NCBI GenBank assembly: GCA_019748195.1
Contig: JAIEPW010000022.1
Coordinates: forward strand, 62,001 to 126,000
DNA from: Bryobacteraceae bacterium
GTDB taxonomy: Bacteria; Acidobacteriota; Terriglobia; Bryobacterales; Bryobacteraceae
Direction: 5' to 3'
DNA length: 64,000 nucleotides
The translations under genes were made by a program, and so were the position numbers. This document shows, piece after piece, positions 50,787 through 56,258 of the stretch; position 1 is the stretch's first letter; every line of letters begins with the position of its first letter. The notes beneath the pieces were generated by a model that was not told where the DNA came from, did no database searches, and saw nothing but the letters and a program-made list of their open reading frames with translations.

Positions 50787-53700
50787 TCAAGCTTTCCTGC
50801 GGCGGACCAACTTGGTGCGCTGGCGCTTGGGGAGCGGGAACGTGAAGCAATCCTCCACGATCCCCGCCTGCTCGCGCTGGTGCCGTTTCAGGGAACCCGC
50901 GGCGGGTGAGGCGGCGCTGAAGCGGCCCACGTAACTCAGGCGGCGCTTGTTGCGGTCCAGGATGCGGCGGATGGGGCCCTTCACCGACATCCAGGCGCCC
51001 ATGTTCTTGGGTTCCTCCTGGACCCATAGCACTTCGGCGTCCTCGGGATACCGCGCCAGGATCTCGGCGAGCATGGTCTCACGGAACGGATAGAGCTGTT
51101 CCGCGCGGACGATGGCCACGTTGTCCGCCTTCTTTTGCTCACGGCCGCCGAGCAGATCGTAGAAGATCTTGCCGGAGCACAGCAGAACGCGATTCACGCG
51201 GGAGCGATCGGTGAGGAACGGATCGTCGAGGATTTCGTGGAAACGCCCGCCCGCCAGATCGTCGAGCGTGGACACGGCCTTGGGGTGCCGCAGGATGGAC
51301 TTCGGCGTGAAGAGGATCAGCGGCTTGCGCATGCCCCGGTTGTCGGCGCCGCCGCGCATCTGGCGGCGAAGAATATGGAAGTACTGCGCCGGTGTCGTGC
51401 AGTTGGCAACCTGCATGTTGCCTTCGGCCGAAAGCTGCAGGAAGCGCTCGATTCGCGCGCTGGAATGCTCCGGACCCTGGCCCTCGTAGCCGTGGGGAAG
51501 CAGCAGCACCAGACCGCTGGGCTGGCCCCACTTCGACTCCGCGGCCGCCAGGAACTGGTCGATGATGATCTGCGCCCCGTTGGCGAAATCGCCGAATTGA
51601 CCTTCCCACAGCACCAGCGACAAGGGATCGGCCACGGAGTACCCGAACTCGAAGCCCATCACCGCGAACTCGCTCAGCGCGGAGTCATAGACCTCAAACG
51701 AACCCTGATTGGGGGCGAGATTCGCCAGCGGCCGGTACTCGCGCCCGGTTTCGATATCCACATAGTTGGCGTGACGCTGGGAAAAGGTGCCGCGTCCGGA
51801 ATCCTGACCGCTGAGGCGCACCGGCGTGCCTTCCAGCGCCAGCGTGCCGAAAGCCAAAGCTTCCCCCGTGGCCCAATCCAGGGTGGCTCCGGGCTGCAGC
51901 GCCTCGCGGCGCTTCTCGATGAACGGCTTCAACTTGGGATGCAGGTGGAAATCCGGGGGGAACGTCGTGATGCCCTGCAGCACGCGCTGCAGGACGCCGC
52001 GATCCACCGCGGTGCTGGCGCTGGAGGAAGACTCGATCTGGGAGTCCGCGAGGGCGCTCAACTCCTGAATCTCGTACTGCTGCTTCAACTGCTGGGCGCG
52101 GTCATAAACTTCGTTCAACCGCTGGCGGATGCCGCGCCGCATCTCCTCGACCTCCCCGGAGGTCACCACGTTTTCGGCAAGCAGGCGATCGGCATACAAC
52201 GCCGCCACCGGCTTGTGGGCGGCGATCTTCGCATACATCTGCGGCTGCGTGTAGCTGGGGTCGTCGGTTTCATTGTGGCCGTGCTTGCGATAGCACACCA
52301 TGTCGATGACCACGTCCTTCCGGAAGGCCTGGCGGTAATCGAAGGCGAGTTGGGCCACGCGAATGCACGCTTCCGGGTCGTCGCCGTTGACATGGAACAC
52401 GGGCGCCTGGATCATCAGCGCGACATCGGAGCTGTAGGTGGTGGAGCGAACTTCGTAGGGATTCGCGGTGAAGCCAAGCTGGTTGTTGATGATGATATGG
52501 AGCGTGCCGCCGGTCTCATAGCCGGGGATCTGCGAAAGGTTCAGCGTCTCCATCACCACGCCCTGCCCGGCGAACGCGGAGTCGCCGTGGATCAGGATGG
52601 GGATCACGCGTTCGCGTTTCGTATCGCCCATGCGATCCTGCCGCGGGCGGGTAAGTCCTTCCACCACGGGATTCACAGCTTCGAGATGCGAAGGATTGAA
52701 CGCGACCGACACGCCCACTTCCTTGCCCTGGGTGGAGCGGAACCGTCCCTGCGCGCCGAGGTGATACTTGACATCGCCGGAGCCGCCGATCGAATCGGGG
52801 TCGATATCGCCGTCGAATTCGCCGAACAACTGCTCCATGCTCTTGCCGACCACGTTGGCCAGCACGGTCAGGCGTCCGCGATGCGCCATGCCCATCACGG
52901 ATTCCTGGACGCCGGTGTTCGCCGCGCGCTCCAGGATTTCGTCCAGCATCGCCAGGACAGCTTCGCCGCCCTCGGCGGAGAAGCGCTTGTGCCCCATGAA
53001 TCGAGTGTGCAGGAAGACTTCGAAGCCTTCGGCGTCCACCAGCTTGTTGAGAATGCGCTTGCGCGTCGCGACATCCAAAGCCCAGCGATTTTCCGCGGCT
53101 TCCATGCGGGTTCGCAGCCACTCGCGCTCCGCGGCGTCCTCAATGTGCATGTATTGCACGCCGATGGTGGAGCAATAGGTGCGCTCCAGCCGGGCGATGA
53201 GCTCGCGCAGGGAGACGGCGCTTCCGTCCACGAGGAACGTACGATCCAGGTCCCAAACCGAAAGCCCGTGCGCGCCGGGATCGAGAGACGCGGGCGGCGG
53301 CGGAGCCGGATTCAGGGGATCGAGATGCGCGGCGAGATGGCCGCGAACCCGGTATTCGTTGATGAGCCGCTCCACGGCCGCGGCCTTCGCCGGGTCGGTT
53401 TCCACGCGCGGCATAGCGGCGGACTCGGCGCCCCACGATGCGGGCCGGACACCGATCCCCAGGTCGCGGAAGATGCTCTCGTAAAAGCCGTGTTCGCCTT
53501 CCAGAAGTTCCTGCAGCCGGCCCAGGAACATGCCGCTTTCGGCGCCCTGAATCACGCGATGGTCATAGGTGCAGGTGACCATCATCACCTTGCCGATTCC
53601 CATTTCCACCAGCTTGTTTTCGGTAACCCCGCGGAACTCGGGCGGATAGTCGATCGCGCCGGTGGCGATGATCGCTCCCTGACCCGGCATCAGCCGCGGA

Positions 53701-54434
53701 ATGGAGCCGACGGTGCCGACCGTGCCCGGATTGGTGAGCGAAATCGTGGTGCCCTCAAAATCCGGCACCTGCAGCTTGTTGGATCGGGCGCGTTGCACCA
53801 GGTCGTCGTAAGCAGCCAGGAACTGGGCGAAGTCCATCGACTCCGCCGCTTTGATATTCGGCACTTTCAATGACCGTGTGCCATCCTTGCCGGCGACATC
53901 CACCGCCACGCCGAGGTTCACATGATTGCGAACCAGGCGGAACGCCTCGCCTTCGCTTTCCGCATAGGCATTGTTCACCACGGGCATCGACTCCAGCGCG
54001 CGGACGATGGCCCAGGCTACCAGGTGGGTAAACGAAGTCTTGCCCTGCGCGTTGCGGGCGCGCCATTCATTGATCCGGCGGCGGTTTTCCTCCAGCAGCT
54101 TCACCGGCAGCAGCCGTTGCGACGTGGCCGTCGGAATGGTCAGGCTGCTGGTCATGTTCTCGGCGATCCGCGCCGCGGGACCGCGCAACGGCGTCAGTTG
54201 ATCGCCGGGAAGCGGATTCACCACGGGAGCGGGCGCCAGGGCAGGAGCGGGCGCGGGCGCGGCCAGCACCTTGTAAGCGGCGCCATTGGCGCCCTGGGCG
54301 GCCGGGGCCGGATGGCCGTTGCCTTCAAAAACCTGCTGCCAGCTCGGATCGACCGTGCCGCGATCATGCTGATACTGCTGGTAGAGCTCGTCTTCCAACC
54401 AGCTATTGACGTTGAGCTTCGATTCTTCAGACAT
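50787..54434 (-). CDS. kgd: Multifunctional 2-oxoglutarate dehydrogenase E1/E2 (Kgd-type)
   Basis: 1215 residues. N-terminal E1 helix (NSWLEDELYQQYQHD), a Pro/Ala linker (about 50-85), an E2 succinyltransferase core (about 85-325) ending in the YDHRVIQGAESG variant of the HxxxDG motif, then ThDP-dependent E1 (about 370-1215) with RFMGHKRFSAEGGE, GMAHRGRLTVLANV, IHGDSAFAGQGVV and the transketolase half. No lipoyl domain is present, as in mycobacterial/actinobacterial Kgd, so a lipoyl carrier must come from another protein. It catalyses the oxidative decarboxylation of 2-oxoglutarate in the TCA cycle. Confidence 0.95.
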   Translation of the reverse strand: MSEESKLNVNSWLEDELYQQYQHDRGTVDPSWQQVFEGNGHPAPAAQGANGAAYKVLAAPAPAPALAPAPVVNPLPGDQLTPLRGPAARIAENMTSSLTIPTATSQRLLPVKLLEENRRRINEWRARNAQGKTSFTHLVAWAIVRALESMPVVNNAYAESEGEAFRLVRNHVNLGVAVDVAGKDGTRSLKVPNIKAAESMDFAQFLAAYDDLVQRARSNKLQVPDFEGTTISLTNPGTVGTVGSIPRLMPGQGAIIATGAIDYPPEFRGVTENKLVEMGIGKVMMVTCTYDHRVIQGAESGMFLGRLQELLEGEHGFYESIFRDLGIGVRPASWGAESAAMPRVETDPAKAAAVERLINEYRVRGHLAAHLDPLNPAPPPPASLDPGAHGLSVWDLDRTFLVDGSAVSLRELIARLERTYCSTIGVQYMHIEDAAEREWLRTRMEAAENRWALDVATRKRILNKLVDAEGFEVFLHTRFMGHKRFSAEGGEAVLAMLDEILERAANTGVQESVMGMAHRGRLTVLANVVGKSMEQLFGEFDGDIDPDSIGGSGDVKYHLGAQGRFRSTQGKEVGVSVAFNPSHLEAVNPVVEGLTRPRQDRMGDTKRERVIPILIHGDSAFAGQGVVMETLNLSQIPGYETGGTLHIIINNQLGFTANPYEVRSTTYSSDVALMIQAPVFHVNGDDPEACIRVAQLAFDYRQAFRKDVVIDMVCYRKHGHNETDDPSYTQPQMYAKIAAHKPVAALYADRLLAENVVTSGEVEEMRRGIRQRLNEVYDRAQQLKQQYEIQELSALADSQIESSSSASTAVDRGVLQRVLQGITTFPPDFHLHPKLKPFIEKRREALQPGATLDWATGEALAFGTLALEGTPVRLSGQDSGRGTFSQRHANYVDIETGREYRPLANLAPNQGSFEVYDSALSEFAVMGFEFGYSVADPLSLVLWEGQFGDFANGAQIIIDQFLAAAESKWGQPSGLVLLLPHGYEGQGPEHSSARIERFLQLSAEGNMQVANCTTPAQYFHILRRQMRGGADNRGMRKPLILFTPKSILRHPKAVSTLDDLAGGRFHEILDDPFLTDRSRVNRVLLCSGKIFYDLLGGREQKKADNVAIVRAEQLYPFRETMLAEILARYPEDAEVLWVQEEPKNMGAWMSVKGPIRRILDRNKRRLSYVGRFSAASPAAGSLKRHQREQAGIVEDCFTFPLPKRQRTKLVRRRKA

Positions 54435-54565
54435 TTGGAAAGTCTTGCGAGGGTCTGCTCCTATTCTAGCGCCTTGCTCCCAGTCAGGCGCGGTGCCGCT
54501 CTAGCGTGTTTCCCGCTGGAAATAGACCGCCGCGCCGAAGGAAGAATCCACTGCCTGAAGCAAAA

Positions 54566-54898
54566 CTATCTCAGCTTGGAATAAGTGGATTCATCGAATC
54601 CCAGCAACAGTTCCGATCCGTGAATCAGGATCGGCCTGCGAATGAGATTGGGATTGCTGGACATCAACTCGAGCGCCTCGCCGCGGGATGGCGGATGGTT
54701 CTTCATGTCGCGTTCCCGGTAGAGCTCATTGCGGGTATTCAGGAATTCACGATAGTCGCGCTTGCCAATCAATCGATCGAGCTCGGCGGGAGTCAGGCCT
54801 TTGCTCAGGTCCACCTCCTCGAACCGCACGTCTTTATCGCGCAGGAAACTCCTGGCTTTGCGGCAGGTGGTTCAAGTGGGTTTCAGATACAGCTTCAT
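54566..54898 (-). CDS. ArsC/Spx-family protein with in-frame TGA at the active-site cysteine (candidate selenoprotein)
   Basis: Read from the ATG at 54898, the frame gives MKLYLKPT, then TGA (54872-54874), then TTCRKARSFLRDKDVRFEEVD and continues to the stop at 54566; 110 residues if the TGA is decoded. The family normally has CxxC here (as in Spx), so the TGA replaces the first Cys and leaves a UxxC motif. The rest is intact: NPNLIRRPILIHGSELLLGF matches the conserved ArsC/Spx C-terminus, and the total length is right. Without read-through only a headless 87-residue product from a GTG at 54829 is possible. The gene is 4 nt downstream of a rhodanese gene. Function: thiol/selenol redox enzyme, arsenate reductase-like. 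Confidence 0.75.
54842..54854 (-). promoter_or_regulatory. Candidate bacterial SECIS hairpin
   Basis: On the mRNA a 5-bp stem CAGGA/UCCUG with loop GUU lies 17 nt after the UGA codon, and can be extended by a GC/GC pair below a one-nt bulge. A short hairpin with a G in the apical loop at this distance fits the loose bacterial SECIS description used by SelB. Supported only by inspection. Confidence 0.5.
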
Positions 54899-54902
54899 GC
54901 GA

Positions 54903-55244
54903 TCAGTATCGCGGAACGGAGGGGTCGATTTCCGCGCTCCAGCGGTCGATGCCGCCGGCCAGGCTCTGGCACTGCGCCACGCCCTGCTCCCGAAGCCAGT
55001 TCACCACCATCATGCTGCGCATCCCGTGGTGGCAAAACACGATCAGCGATCCTTCTTCCGCCTTCCCCTCCAGATTCTGCAGCTCCTGCGGCACCGAGCG
55101 CATCGGGATCAGCTCCGCGCCGGCGATCCGCGTGATGGCATGTTCATTCGGTTCGCGGACGTCCACCAGGAACAGCTTCTCCCCCGCATCCAGGCGTTGC
55201 TTCACCTCAGACGGCGTCGTTTCGAGCGGCAGCATCTCGATCAT
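54903..55244 (-). CDS. Rhodanese-like sulfurtransferase
   Basis: 113 residues, single rhodanese domain. LFLVDVREPNEHAITRIAGAELIPM is the standard N-terminal part; the active-site loop is FCHHGMRS with nucleophilic Cys, and SLAGGIDRWSAEIDP closes the fold. It would move sulfane sulfur (or selenium) between thiols. It directly precedes the ArsC/Spx-like gene by 4 nt, so the two are almost certainly co-expressed. Confidence 0.93.
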   Translation of the reverse strand: MIEMLPLETTPSEVKQRLDAGEKLFLVDVREPNEHAITRIAGAELIPMRSVPQELQNLEGKAEEGSLIVFCHHGMRSMMVVNWLREQGVAQCQSLAGGIDRWSAEIDPSVPRY

Positions 55245-55253
55245 GATCGCACT

Positions 55254-56258
55254 TCAACGGGAGCCGCCGCCGAAAATCGACGCCGCCGAGGACATGCGGA
55301 ACTCGGGATGGCGGACGCGGCCTTGGCGGTCGACAACGCCGCTGATCACGAATGCCGGCGACTCAGGCGGGGCGAAACGCAGATCCATTGCCTCCACGCG
55401 GACGGCGCCTTCCTCGTCCGGTAACGGAGTCAAGCGCCAGAACGGGAACTGCGCGAAATTCAGGTAGCGGCGGAAGTCCGCATCGCGGCGAGCCGCGTCG
55501 ATGGCTGGGGTTGCCTCCGGCTTAAAGTGGAAATCGCCCAGTGTGGGATCGAAGGCCCCGAGCACATCCACGCGATGCAGCCCCACCCCCTGCGCAGTCT
55601 CGGTATAGCCGGTCCAGGTGAACGGCCAGAACGCGTTGGGAAACGCCGCGACGCGCACCGGCGCCTGGCCGTTGTAGATCCGCGAGCTCAGCATTTCGAG
55701 AGCCCGGTCGTGCGAAAGCCATCGCGCCGCGTCGTACAGCCCCACGAACAGCAGCGCCAGAATCGCGGAGCCGCGCCCGCGCGTCTTCGGTGCGCCGATC
55801 TCGGCGCTCACCAGCCGGCTAAGCCAGGGCGCGGCCACCGCGAGACCGAGAGCGAGCAGGATCCAGGCGTCCACTACGTGGGTGATGTCGGCGCGCAGCC
55901 AGCGATCCGAAAACGGAAGCAGCAGCCGGATTGCGTATACGTTCGTCCAGTCCAGCGCAAGATGACTCGCAACCGCCAGCAGCGACAGCGCATAAAGCGG
56001 CAGCCAGCGGAATCCGCCCTTGGCGAACAGCTTCACCATCAGCAGGGGCGGCAGCGCCATCAGCGGCAGAAACGCGATTGCGTGCGTGTGCCCGCGATGG
56101 ATATCGAGATATGTCAGGGTGCCGAAGGCGCCGGAGACTACGTCCAGGTCGGGAATGTTCGCCGCCAGCATCATGACCGGCGCGGCGTAAGGCGAAAAGC
56201 GATCGCCGCCCGCGCGGCTCATCATCAGCCCGATGAGCGTATGCGTGATGTTATCCAT
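55254..56258 (-). CDS. YdjM/DUF457-type membrane-bound metal-dependent hydrolase
   Basis: 334 residues. N-terminus MDNITHTLIGLMMSRAG with the conserved THT, then NIPDLDVVSG and HRGHTHAIAFLPLMA, all candidate metal ligands of the family. Several TM helices in residues 20-185. The C-terminal about 130 residues form a soluble extension. Physiological substrate unknown. Confidence 0.88.
   Translation of the reverse strand: MDNITHTLIGLMMSRAGGDRFSPYAAPVMMLAANIPDLDVVSGAFGTLTYLDIHRGHTHAIAFLPLMALPPLLMVKLFAKGGFRWLPLYALSLLAVASHLALDWTNVYAIRLLLPFSDRWLRADITHVVDAWILLALGLAVAAPWLSRLVSAEIGAPKTRGRGSAILALLFVGLYDAARWLSHDRALEMLSSRIYNGQAPVRVAAFPNAFWPFTWTGYTETAQGVGLHRVDVLGAFDPTLGDFHFKPEATPAIDAARRDADFRRYLNFAQFPFWRLTPLPDEEGAVRVEAMDLRFAPPESPAFVISGVVDRQGRVRHPEFRMSSAASIFGGGSR

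What the first reader, a model, noticed from the sequence alone, without database searches (positions are those of the whole stretch)
54566..54898. Candidate selenoprotein of the ArsC/Spx family (UxxC), 4 nt after a rhodanese gene
Seen in sequence: from the ATG at 54898 the frame encodes MKLYLKPT, then TGA, then TTCRKAR and a complete ArsC/Spx fold to residue 110. The TGA sits exactly at the first cysteine of the CxxC active site. There is no other lesion: no frameshift or other stop, and the conserved C-terminus is intact, which argues against simple decay. A 5-bp hairpin with loop GUU starts 17 nt after the UGA, at a spacing consistent with a bacterial SECIS. Established: Cys-to-Sec replacement at redox-active thiols is the rule in bacterial selenoproteins, and ArsC-like selenoproteins have been reported from environmental sequence surveys. 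Inference: the pair rhodanese + Sec-ArsC is a small redox/selenium or arsenic unit that standard gene callers will truncate to a headless 87-residue ORF.
Basis: partly seen in the sequence, partly recalled or inferred. Interest (0 to 1): 0.88.

Follow-up and report, generated by a model that had tools for sequence, protein, structure and literature searches.

The report
Soil-bacterial Spx-like selenoprotein beside a rhodanese
A gene that looks broken by a stop codon very probably encodes a small redox protein carrying selenocysteine, kept by many related soil bacteria and often paired with a sulfur-transfer gene; it is a new branch of an already known kind of selenoprotein.

Summary
From ATG 54898 (minus strand) a 110-codon ArsC/Spx-like frame is open except for TGA at codon 9 (54872-54874), the first position of CxxC; a rhodanese gene ends 4 nt upstream. 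The genome has SelA, SelB, tRNA-Sec(UCA) and a SelD gene that itself carries a TGA. A sharply separated ortholog group in 66 of 237 genomes of the family has this codon as TGA (52) or Cys (14), nothing else. A hairpin loop GAGUU sits at a fixed distance after the UGA in 52 of 52 UGA genes and 0 of 14 Cys genes; stems change compensatorily, in two registers. Both sides of the UGA are under purifying selection. In 6 of the 14 Cys genomes neither SelB nor tRNA-Sec was found; in 0 of the 52 UGA genomes are both missing. So this is a selenoprotein, not decay. It is closest in sequence to Spx/MgsR/YffB proteins, not classical arsenate reductase (one of three arginines kept), and not the catalogued family NF041106. 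The rhodanese pair recurs in 31 of 66 loci. Most likely role: UxxC thiol/selenol reductase working with rhodanese-bound sulfur; that part is inference. UxxC ArsC-like selenoproteins were already reported from marine metagenomes, so: new member of a known kind.

The parts
54566..54898 (-). Sec-containing ArsC/Spx-like gene, 110 codons plus stop, UGA at codon 9
54872..54874 (-). UGA codon read as selenocysteine (U9 of the UxxC motif)
   Evidence: TGA in 52 and Cys codon in 14 of 66 orthologs
54839..54856 (-). SECIS hairpin; minimal stem-loop CAGGA-GUU-UCCUG at 54842-54854, loop G-U at 54848-54849
54903..55244 (-). single-domain rhodanese (CHHGMRS active-site loop), ends 4 nt before the selenoprotein start
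   Evidence: Pfam PF00581 3.1e-15; adjacent in 31 of 66 ortholog loci; motif

Best explanation
The gene encodes a selenoprotein of the Spx/MgsR/YffB branch of the ArsC (glutaredoxin-fold) superfamily. SelB with Sec-tRNA(UCA) reads the UGA at codon 9 because a hairpin with a G-U in its apical loop begins 15-17 nt downstream, inside the coding sequence. Sec and Cys12 form a UxxC redox pair at the start of helix 1. Supported by comparison: recoding, SECIS, fold (predicted), exchange with Cys, pairing with rhodanese. Inferred: the protein is a thiol/selenol reductase that takes oxidised or persulfidated substrate, plausibly the sulfane sulfur carried by the neighbouring CX4R rhodanese, and is re-reduced by thioredoxin or a small thiol. 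The confidence below is for the selenoprotein claim; for the rhodanese-linked reductase role I put about 0.45.
For: Own genome (99.67% complete) has SelA 484.9 bits, SelB 361.3, SelD 369 with one TGA, all over cut-off, and tRNA-Sec 72.8 bits, anticodon TCA. Ortholog group in 66 of 237 family genomes at 124 bits or more, next match 39.8 bits; codon 9 TGA 52, TGT/TGC 14. GAGTT at offset 23-27 in 52 of 52 UGA and 0 of 14 Cys genes; G-U at offset 25-26 in 87 of 90 UGA and 4 of 28 Cys genes including distant relatives. Hairpin of 4-8 consecutive pairs in 52 of 52 UGA, 0-3 in 14 of 14 Cys genes; more stable than synonymous recodings at p<0.05 in 41 of 52 UGA versus 1 of 14 Cys genes; Ser codon AGT in 52 of 52 at the loop versus 7 of 164 Ser codons in other sampled parts of these genes. 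dN/dS 0.078 upstream and 0.156 downstream of the UGA over 55 close pairs. Neither SelB over cut-off nor tRNA-Sec in 6 of 14 Cys genomes versus 0 of 52 UGA genomes, p = 3e-5 if counted as independent, but all six lie in one clade. AlphaFold model pLDDT 94.4; best PDB matches ArsC-related, Spx and YffB proteins, Z 15.9-17.
Against: No expression or mass-spectrometry data. RNAalifold on the pooled 52 sequences finds only 2 unrelated pairs, I think because two stem registers are mixed; pair counting shows cells paired and covariation above 500 of 500 shuffles but no more pairs with double changes than shuffles, and each register slid by one is as high because it becomes the other. Five of 52 UGA genomes have no SelB over cut-off (all five have tRNA-Sec). 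One of 52 (L059) has an additional in-frame TAG. 8 of 14 Cys genomes do have SelB over cut-off. Rhodanese is not adjacent in 35 of 66 loci, so the functional link is not obligatory.
Confidence: 0.95

Rival explanations
1. A Spx-type regulator: the protein binds the RNA polymerase alpha C-terminal domain and its UxxC pair is the redox switch.
For: 65 of 65 aligned members match TIGR01617 (Spx/MgsR) at E<=0.001, window member 76.5 bits against cut-off 75.05; Spx chains among the best structural matches, 3ihq Z 16.1; R88 of the RRP motif is invariant, 66 of 66.
Against: Spx models PRK01655/12559/13344 stay far below cut-off (62.5 against 123, 35.7 against 159, 36.5 against 152). At 110 residues it is shorter than most Spx sequences matched (131-132; one of 120). 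Spx, YffB and ArsC-related chains are close in structure score, so fold does not decide. Recurrent pairing with rhodanese suggests sulfur chemistry.
Confidence: 0.2
2. A selenocysteine arsenate reductase for arsenic detoxification.
For: Same superfamily; TIGR00014 matches 65 of 65 members at E<=0.001; Arg94 equivalent kept.
Against: Window member 44.4 bits against cut-off 106.05. In an alignment with two ArsC-like relatives that carry Arg at these places, they become Asn54 (66 of 66) and position 101 (Phe 53 of 66, no Arg in any); only R88 is kept. No arsenic transport or regulator family among the neighbour families shown (first 25 of 34 and of 28 families shown).
Confidence: 0.1
3. A decayed gene or sequencing error at codon 9.
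For: A single in-frame stop is what a first lesion looks like.
Against: 52 genomes share the same TGA, none of the 66 another stop there; purifying selection on both sides; hairpin tied to UGA.
Confidence: 0.01
4. UGA is a true stop and the 87-aa downstream ORF is the product by re-initiation.
For: A GTG at 54829 opens an 87-aa ORF.
Against: Codons 1-8 and 10-23, outside that ORF, are conserved (Y4 and L19 invariant; K6, P7, C12 and R13 in 90% or more of 65), with dN/dS 0.078 for codons 1-8.
Confidence: 0.02

Closest known systems
Arsenate reductase 2, UxxC, cd03032 (42 genes in the Global Ocean Sampling selenoproteome, PMC2398784, passages)
   Same: ArsC-superfamily selenoprotein with UxxC; cd03032 is, from recall, the ArsC_Spx subfamily
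   Different: Marine metagenome genes; no rhodanese pairing stated in the passages read. Sequences could not be compared here, so it may be the same family.
NF041106 ArsC_rel_Se_1, ArsC family (seleno)protein
   Same: UxxC at the same place, also with TGA in the same bacterial family (L121-L126, 6 loci looked at; the two scanned score 139.3 and 124.3 bits)
   Different: Window protein 37.6 bits against cut-off 85; those six are 26-32% identical to it.
Spx / MgsR (TIGR01617)
   Same: Best curated family, just over its cut-off; same fold and CxxC position
   Different: Sec in place of the first Cys; shorter; full Spx models not met.
YffB (PA3664, PDB 1rw1; Bm-YffB 2kok)
   Same: Same fold, Z 15.9 and 12.0; keeps only one of the ArsC arginines, as Bm-YffB does (PMC3169414, passages)
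   Different: Bm-YffB has a single Cys; the present family has UxxC.

Membership tests
Bacterial selenoprotein | In-frame UGA aligned with a redox-active Cys of homologs | tested here: met
   52 TGA and 14 Cys of 66 orthologs
Bacterial selenoprotein | SECIS hairpin just after the UGA with G in the first two loop positions | tested here: met
   single-sequence support for the window weak, pooled consensus fold failed; the loop rule is recalled
Bacterial selenoprotein | SelA, SelB, SelC, SelD in the genome | tested here: met
Bacterial selenoprotein | Selenium incorporation in the protein | not testable with these tools
   needs 75Se or mass spectrometry
Spx/MgsR (TIGR01617) | Score over curated cut-off 75.05 | tested here: met
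   76.5 bits, narrowly
Spx transcription regulator | Score over the cut-off of a full Spx model | tested here: not met
   62.5/123, 35.7/159, 36.5/152
Spx transcription regulator | Binding to RNA polymerase alpha C-terminal domain | not testable with these tools
   no interaction data
Classical glutaredoxin-linked arsenate reductase (TIGR00014) | Score over cut-off 106.05 | tested here: not met
   44.4 bits
Classical glutaredoxin-linked arsenate reductase (TIGR00014) | Arginine triad 60/94/107 (PMC3169414, passages) | tested here: not met
NF041106 ArsC_rel_Se_1 | Score over cut-off 85 | tested here: not met
   37.6 bits
GOS Arsenate reductase 2 (cd03032, UxxC) | Sequence similarity to the GOS genes | not tested
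   those sequences are not held here

The most novel reading that the evidence does not exclude
A selenocysteine-based Spx-type switch: rhodanese-bound persulfide or selenide oxidises the U-C pair, and the oxidised protein acts on RNA polymerase, so that sulfane-sulfur load is sensed through selenium. This would be a transcription regulator with Sec as its sensing residue.
Probability: 0.12. Interest if true: 0.85.

Novelty: new member of a known kind. Interest (0 to 1): 0.5.

Why it matters
A plain ORF search cuts this protein at residue 8 or starts it headless, so a redox protein that is common in one family of soil bacteria is easily mis-annotated. The family gives a natural experiment: about five Cys/Sec exchanges within one bacterial family (fewest changes on a weakly resolved tree), one clade in which six of seven genomes show neither SelB nor tRNA-Sec and all seven have Cys without the hairpin, and a few distant Cys genes that still carry a SECIS-like loop. 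The recurrent rhodanese partner gives a testable lead to a function for Spx/YffB-like proteins.

Tried and rejected
Rejected: pseudogene, sequencing error, re-initiation at GTG 54829, classical arsenate reductase, membership in NF041106 (reasons in the rivals and membership rows). Other neighbours are not conserved: of the window's five other neighbour proteins searched none was found in the other 65 loci except one 29.8% SDR match in L071; Pfam over 62 of 63 downstream ORFs and 53 of 65 upstream ORFs picked gave, apart from rhodanese (16 of 53), families in at most 10 of 62 and 6 of 53 members (ORFs were picked by length, so some are not genes and rhodanese is undercounted there). No sigma-70-like promoter in 54400-55400. 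RNAalifold on the pooled SECIS alignment failed. Structural comparison cannot choose between Spx, YffB and ArsC-related proteins.

Rows dropped: L059 (extra TAG) from alignment A1, the tree and the dN/dS count; L222 (N-terminus out of frame) and L239 (classical ArsC) from the tree and the SECIS count; L233 from the SECIS count only. Of 108 loci examined (L211 and L212, two of the core genes again, were left out), 53 were exact copies of core loci; the remaining 55 may still hold near-duplicates. The tree has few columns (111 kept) and 48 of 115 inner branches open, so 5 (core) and 12 (all) Cys/Sec changes are rough.

Literature, as seen: PMC1794560, PMC4807772, PMC13188914, PMC9312934, PMC1088965, PMC2398784, PMC12013277 and PMC3169414 in passages found by term; all other papers only in listings. 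In these searches I found no report of this subfamily or of the rhodanese pairing; the library lacks most subscription journals, and supplements were not read.

Full report
What is there. On the minus strand, ATG 54898 opens a 110-codon frame with one TGA, codon 9 (54872-54874), and a TAG stop at 54566-54568. The read-through protein matches Pfam ArsC at 2.8e-19 over residues 4-108 and NCBIfam TIGR01617 (Spx/MgsR) at 76.5 bits, cut-off 75.05. The TGA stands at the first position of CxxC (UTTC). A rhodanese gene (54903-55244) ends 4 nt before it.

The genome can insert selenocysteine. In the window's own genome (5.83 Mb, 99.67% complete) SelA (484.9 bits), SelB (361.3) and SelD (369; with its own TGA) exceed their cut-offs and tRNA-Sec scores 72.8 bits with anticodon TCA. 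The other tRNA-Sec matches in that search, 45.4 bits or less, are below the gathering score; the three of them checked with ARAGORN are tRNA-Ser.

Relatives. Of 237 genomes of the same family searched, 66 hold an ortholog at 124 bits or more and 53% identity or more; the next match falls to 39.8 bits. Public records that hold 53 of these genes are titled Bryobacterales, Solibacteraceae, Terriglobia and the like, that is mostly Acidobacteriota (a few titles name other phyla). Codon 9 is TGA in 52 and TGT/TGC in 14 of the 66, never anything else. In an even sample of the phylum, 63 of 396 genomes match the profile at 1e-15, 24 of these 63 with a TGA inside the match; one more distant public record is titled Deltaproteobacteria (L168).

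SECIS. At a fixed place after the UGA all 52 UGA genes carry GAGTT, none of the 14 Cys genes does. The stem exists in two registers: CAGGA-GUU-UCCUG type (28 genes) and GCGAAG-AGUUNG-CUUCGC type (24), with compensating changes such as C-G to G-C and A-U to C-G. UGA genes have 4-8 consecutive pairs, Cys genes 0-3. Against synonymous recoding, 41 of 52 UGA genes but 1 of 14 Cys genes fold better at p<0.05. Most more distant UGA genes keep the loop G-U at the same offset, often as AGGUCU, so that over all sets 87 of 90 UGA and 4 of 28 Cys genes have it. The four are L189, L195, L196 and L229; the first three form one clade among UGA relatives, which suggests a Sec-to-Cys change with a relic hairpin; direction is inferred. 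Against: the pooled alignment gives no consensus fold, the one-base slid control is as high as the structure itself because the two registers are one base apart, and the window's own 46-nt fold is unremarkable (z -0.56).

Selection and loss. dN/dS is 0.078 for codons 1-8 and 0.156 downstream in 55 close UGA pairs. SelB is over cut-off in 54 of 65 other ortholog genomes. Of the 11 without, 6 are Cys genomes and 5 UGA genomes. A tRNA-Sec search of 25 of the 65 genomes found a match of 64.7 bits or more in 18, among them all five of those UGA genomes. The six Cys genomes, and a seventh, G183, have only matches of 42.7-49.6 bits, four of them over the gathering score of 47; ARAGORN reads the best match of each of the seven as tRNA-Ser, while two of the high-scoring ones (G117, G207) are read as tRNA-Sec. 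These seven are exactly one clade of the tree; G183 does have SelB over cut-off and is 89% complete. So this is probably one loss event, and the p value of 3e-5 overstates the independence. The other 7 of 14 Cys genomes have both SelB over cut-off and tRNA-Sec.

Partner. A rhodanese like the window's (54-69% identical in the other core loci) lies directly upstream on the same strand, its match ending within 130 nt of codon 9, in 31 of 66 loci (28 UGA, 3 Cys), in 7 of 55 further loci, and within 300 nt in 3 more. A quick motif scan found a CH-x-G-[VMI]-R-S loop in 38 of these 41 (in two it found nothing and in one an unrelated motif), a CX4R loop as in sulfurtransferases (recalled). The other window neighbours are not conserved.

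Fold and function. AlphaFold2 gives pLDDT 94.4; the best solved structures are an ArsC-related protein (3gkx, Z 17.0), Spx (3ihq, 16.1) and YffB (1rw1, 15.9), nearly tied. Of the ArsC arginine triad only the residue at R88 remains, in 66 of 66; the others are Asn54 (66 of 66) and position 101 (Phe in 53, no Arg). Bm-YffB, which also keeps one, binds glutathione and was proposed to be a glutathione-dependent thiol reductase (PMC3169414, passages). I therefore favour a UxxC thiol/selenol reductase that works with rhodanese-borne sulfur (about 0.45), then an Spx-like regulator (0.2), arsenate reductase (0.1); the rest is open.

What is known. ArsC-like selenoproteins were listed in 2005-2008: UxxS arsenate reductase in the Sargasso Sea (PMC1088965), ArsC-like in Desulfotalea and a distant ArsC homolog in Desulfuromonas (PMC1794560), and in the Global Ocean Sampling set UxxS (77) and UxxC cd03032 (42) forms (PMC2398784) (passages). 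The reviews of 2022 and 2026 list UxxS arsenate reductase and a UxxC arsenate reductase-like protein, NF041106 in the latter (passages). The present family's window member scores far below NF041106 (37.6 against 85 bits), which exists separately in the same bacterial family. It is thus a distinct subfamily, without a model of its own among those that matched in NCBIfam, of a known kind, with a recurrent rhodanese partner.

Noticed in passing
L020 (G000:C106:33487-34392): The SelD gene of this genome carries an in-frame TGA (read through: HVKAAGUASKL), so the genome probably has at least two selenoprotein genes.
   Followed up: partly
L002 (G000:C91:23528-23836): A second ArsC-family gene without any stop; in the matched stretch the CxxC positions are not Cys (NSQATRAA). 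Stop-free matches of about 23-30% identity recur in many genomes of the family; whether they lack Cys too was not checked.
   Followed up: no
L121-L126: Six loci of an ArsC-related family with motif YHR[PN]GUxTC and TGA occur in the same bacterial family; the two scanned belong to the catalogued NF041106.
   Followed up: partly
L189, L195, L196, L229: Cys-codon relatives that still carry a SECIS-like loop (AGGUCU, AAGUCU or AAGUUU), possible relics of Sec-to-Cys change.
   Followed up: partly
L059 (G177:C205) and L232 (G512:C2): UGA members with an additional in-frame TAG: true decay or assembly error.
   Followed up: no
G183: SelB over cut-off but no tRNA-Sec found (89% complete genome) in a Cys-form member of the clade whose other six members show neither.
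   Followed up: partly
G226:C459, G224:C37, G220:C767, G219:C72: A second, stop-free ArsC-like match lies about 40-70 bases downstream of the selenoprotein match in these four genomes of one genus.
   Followed up: no
window 50787-54434 (-): A 1215-aa 2-oxoglutarate dehydrogenase-like ORF, apparently a fused E2-E1 type (by inspection, not searched against a library), follows the selenoprotein gene in the window but not in the other 65 loci.
   Followed up: no
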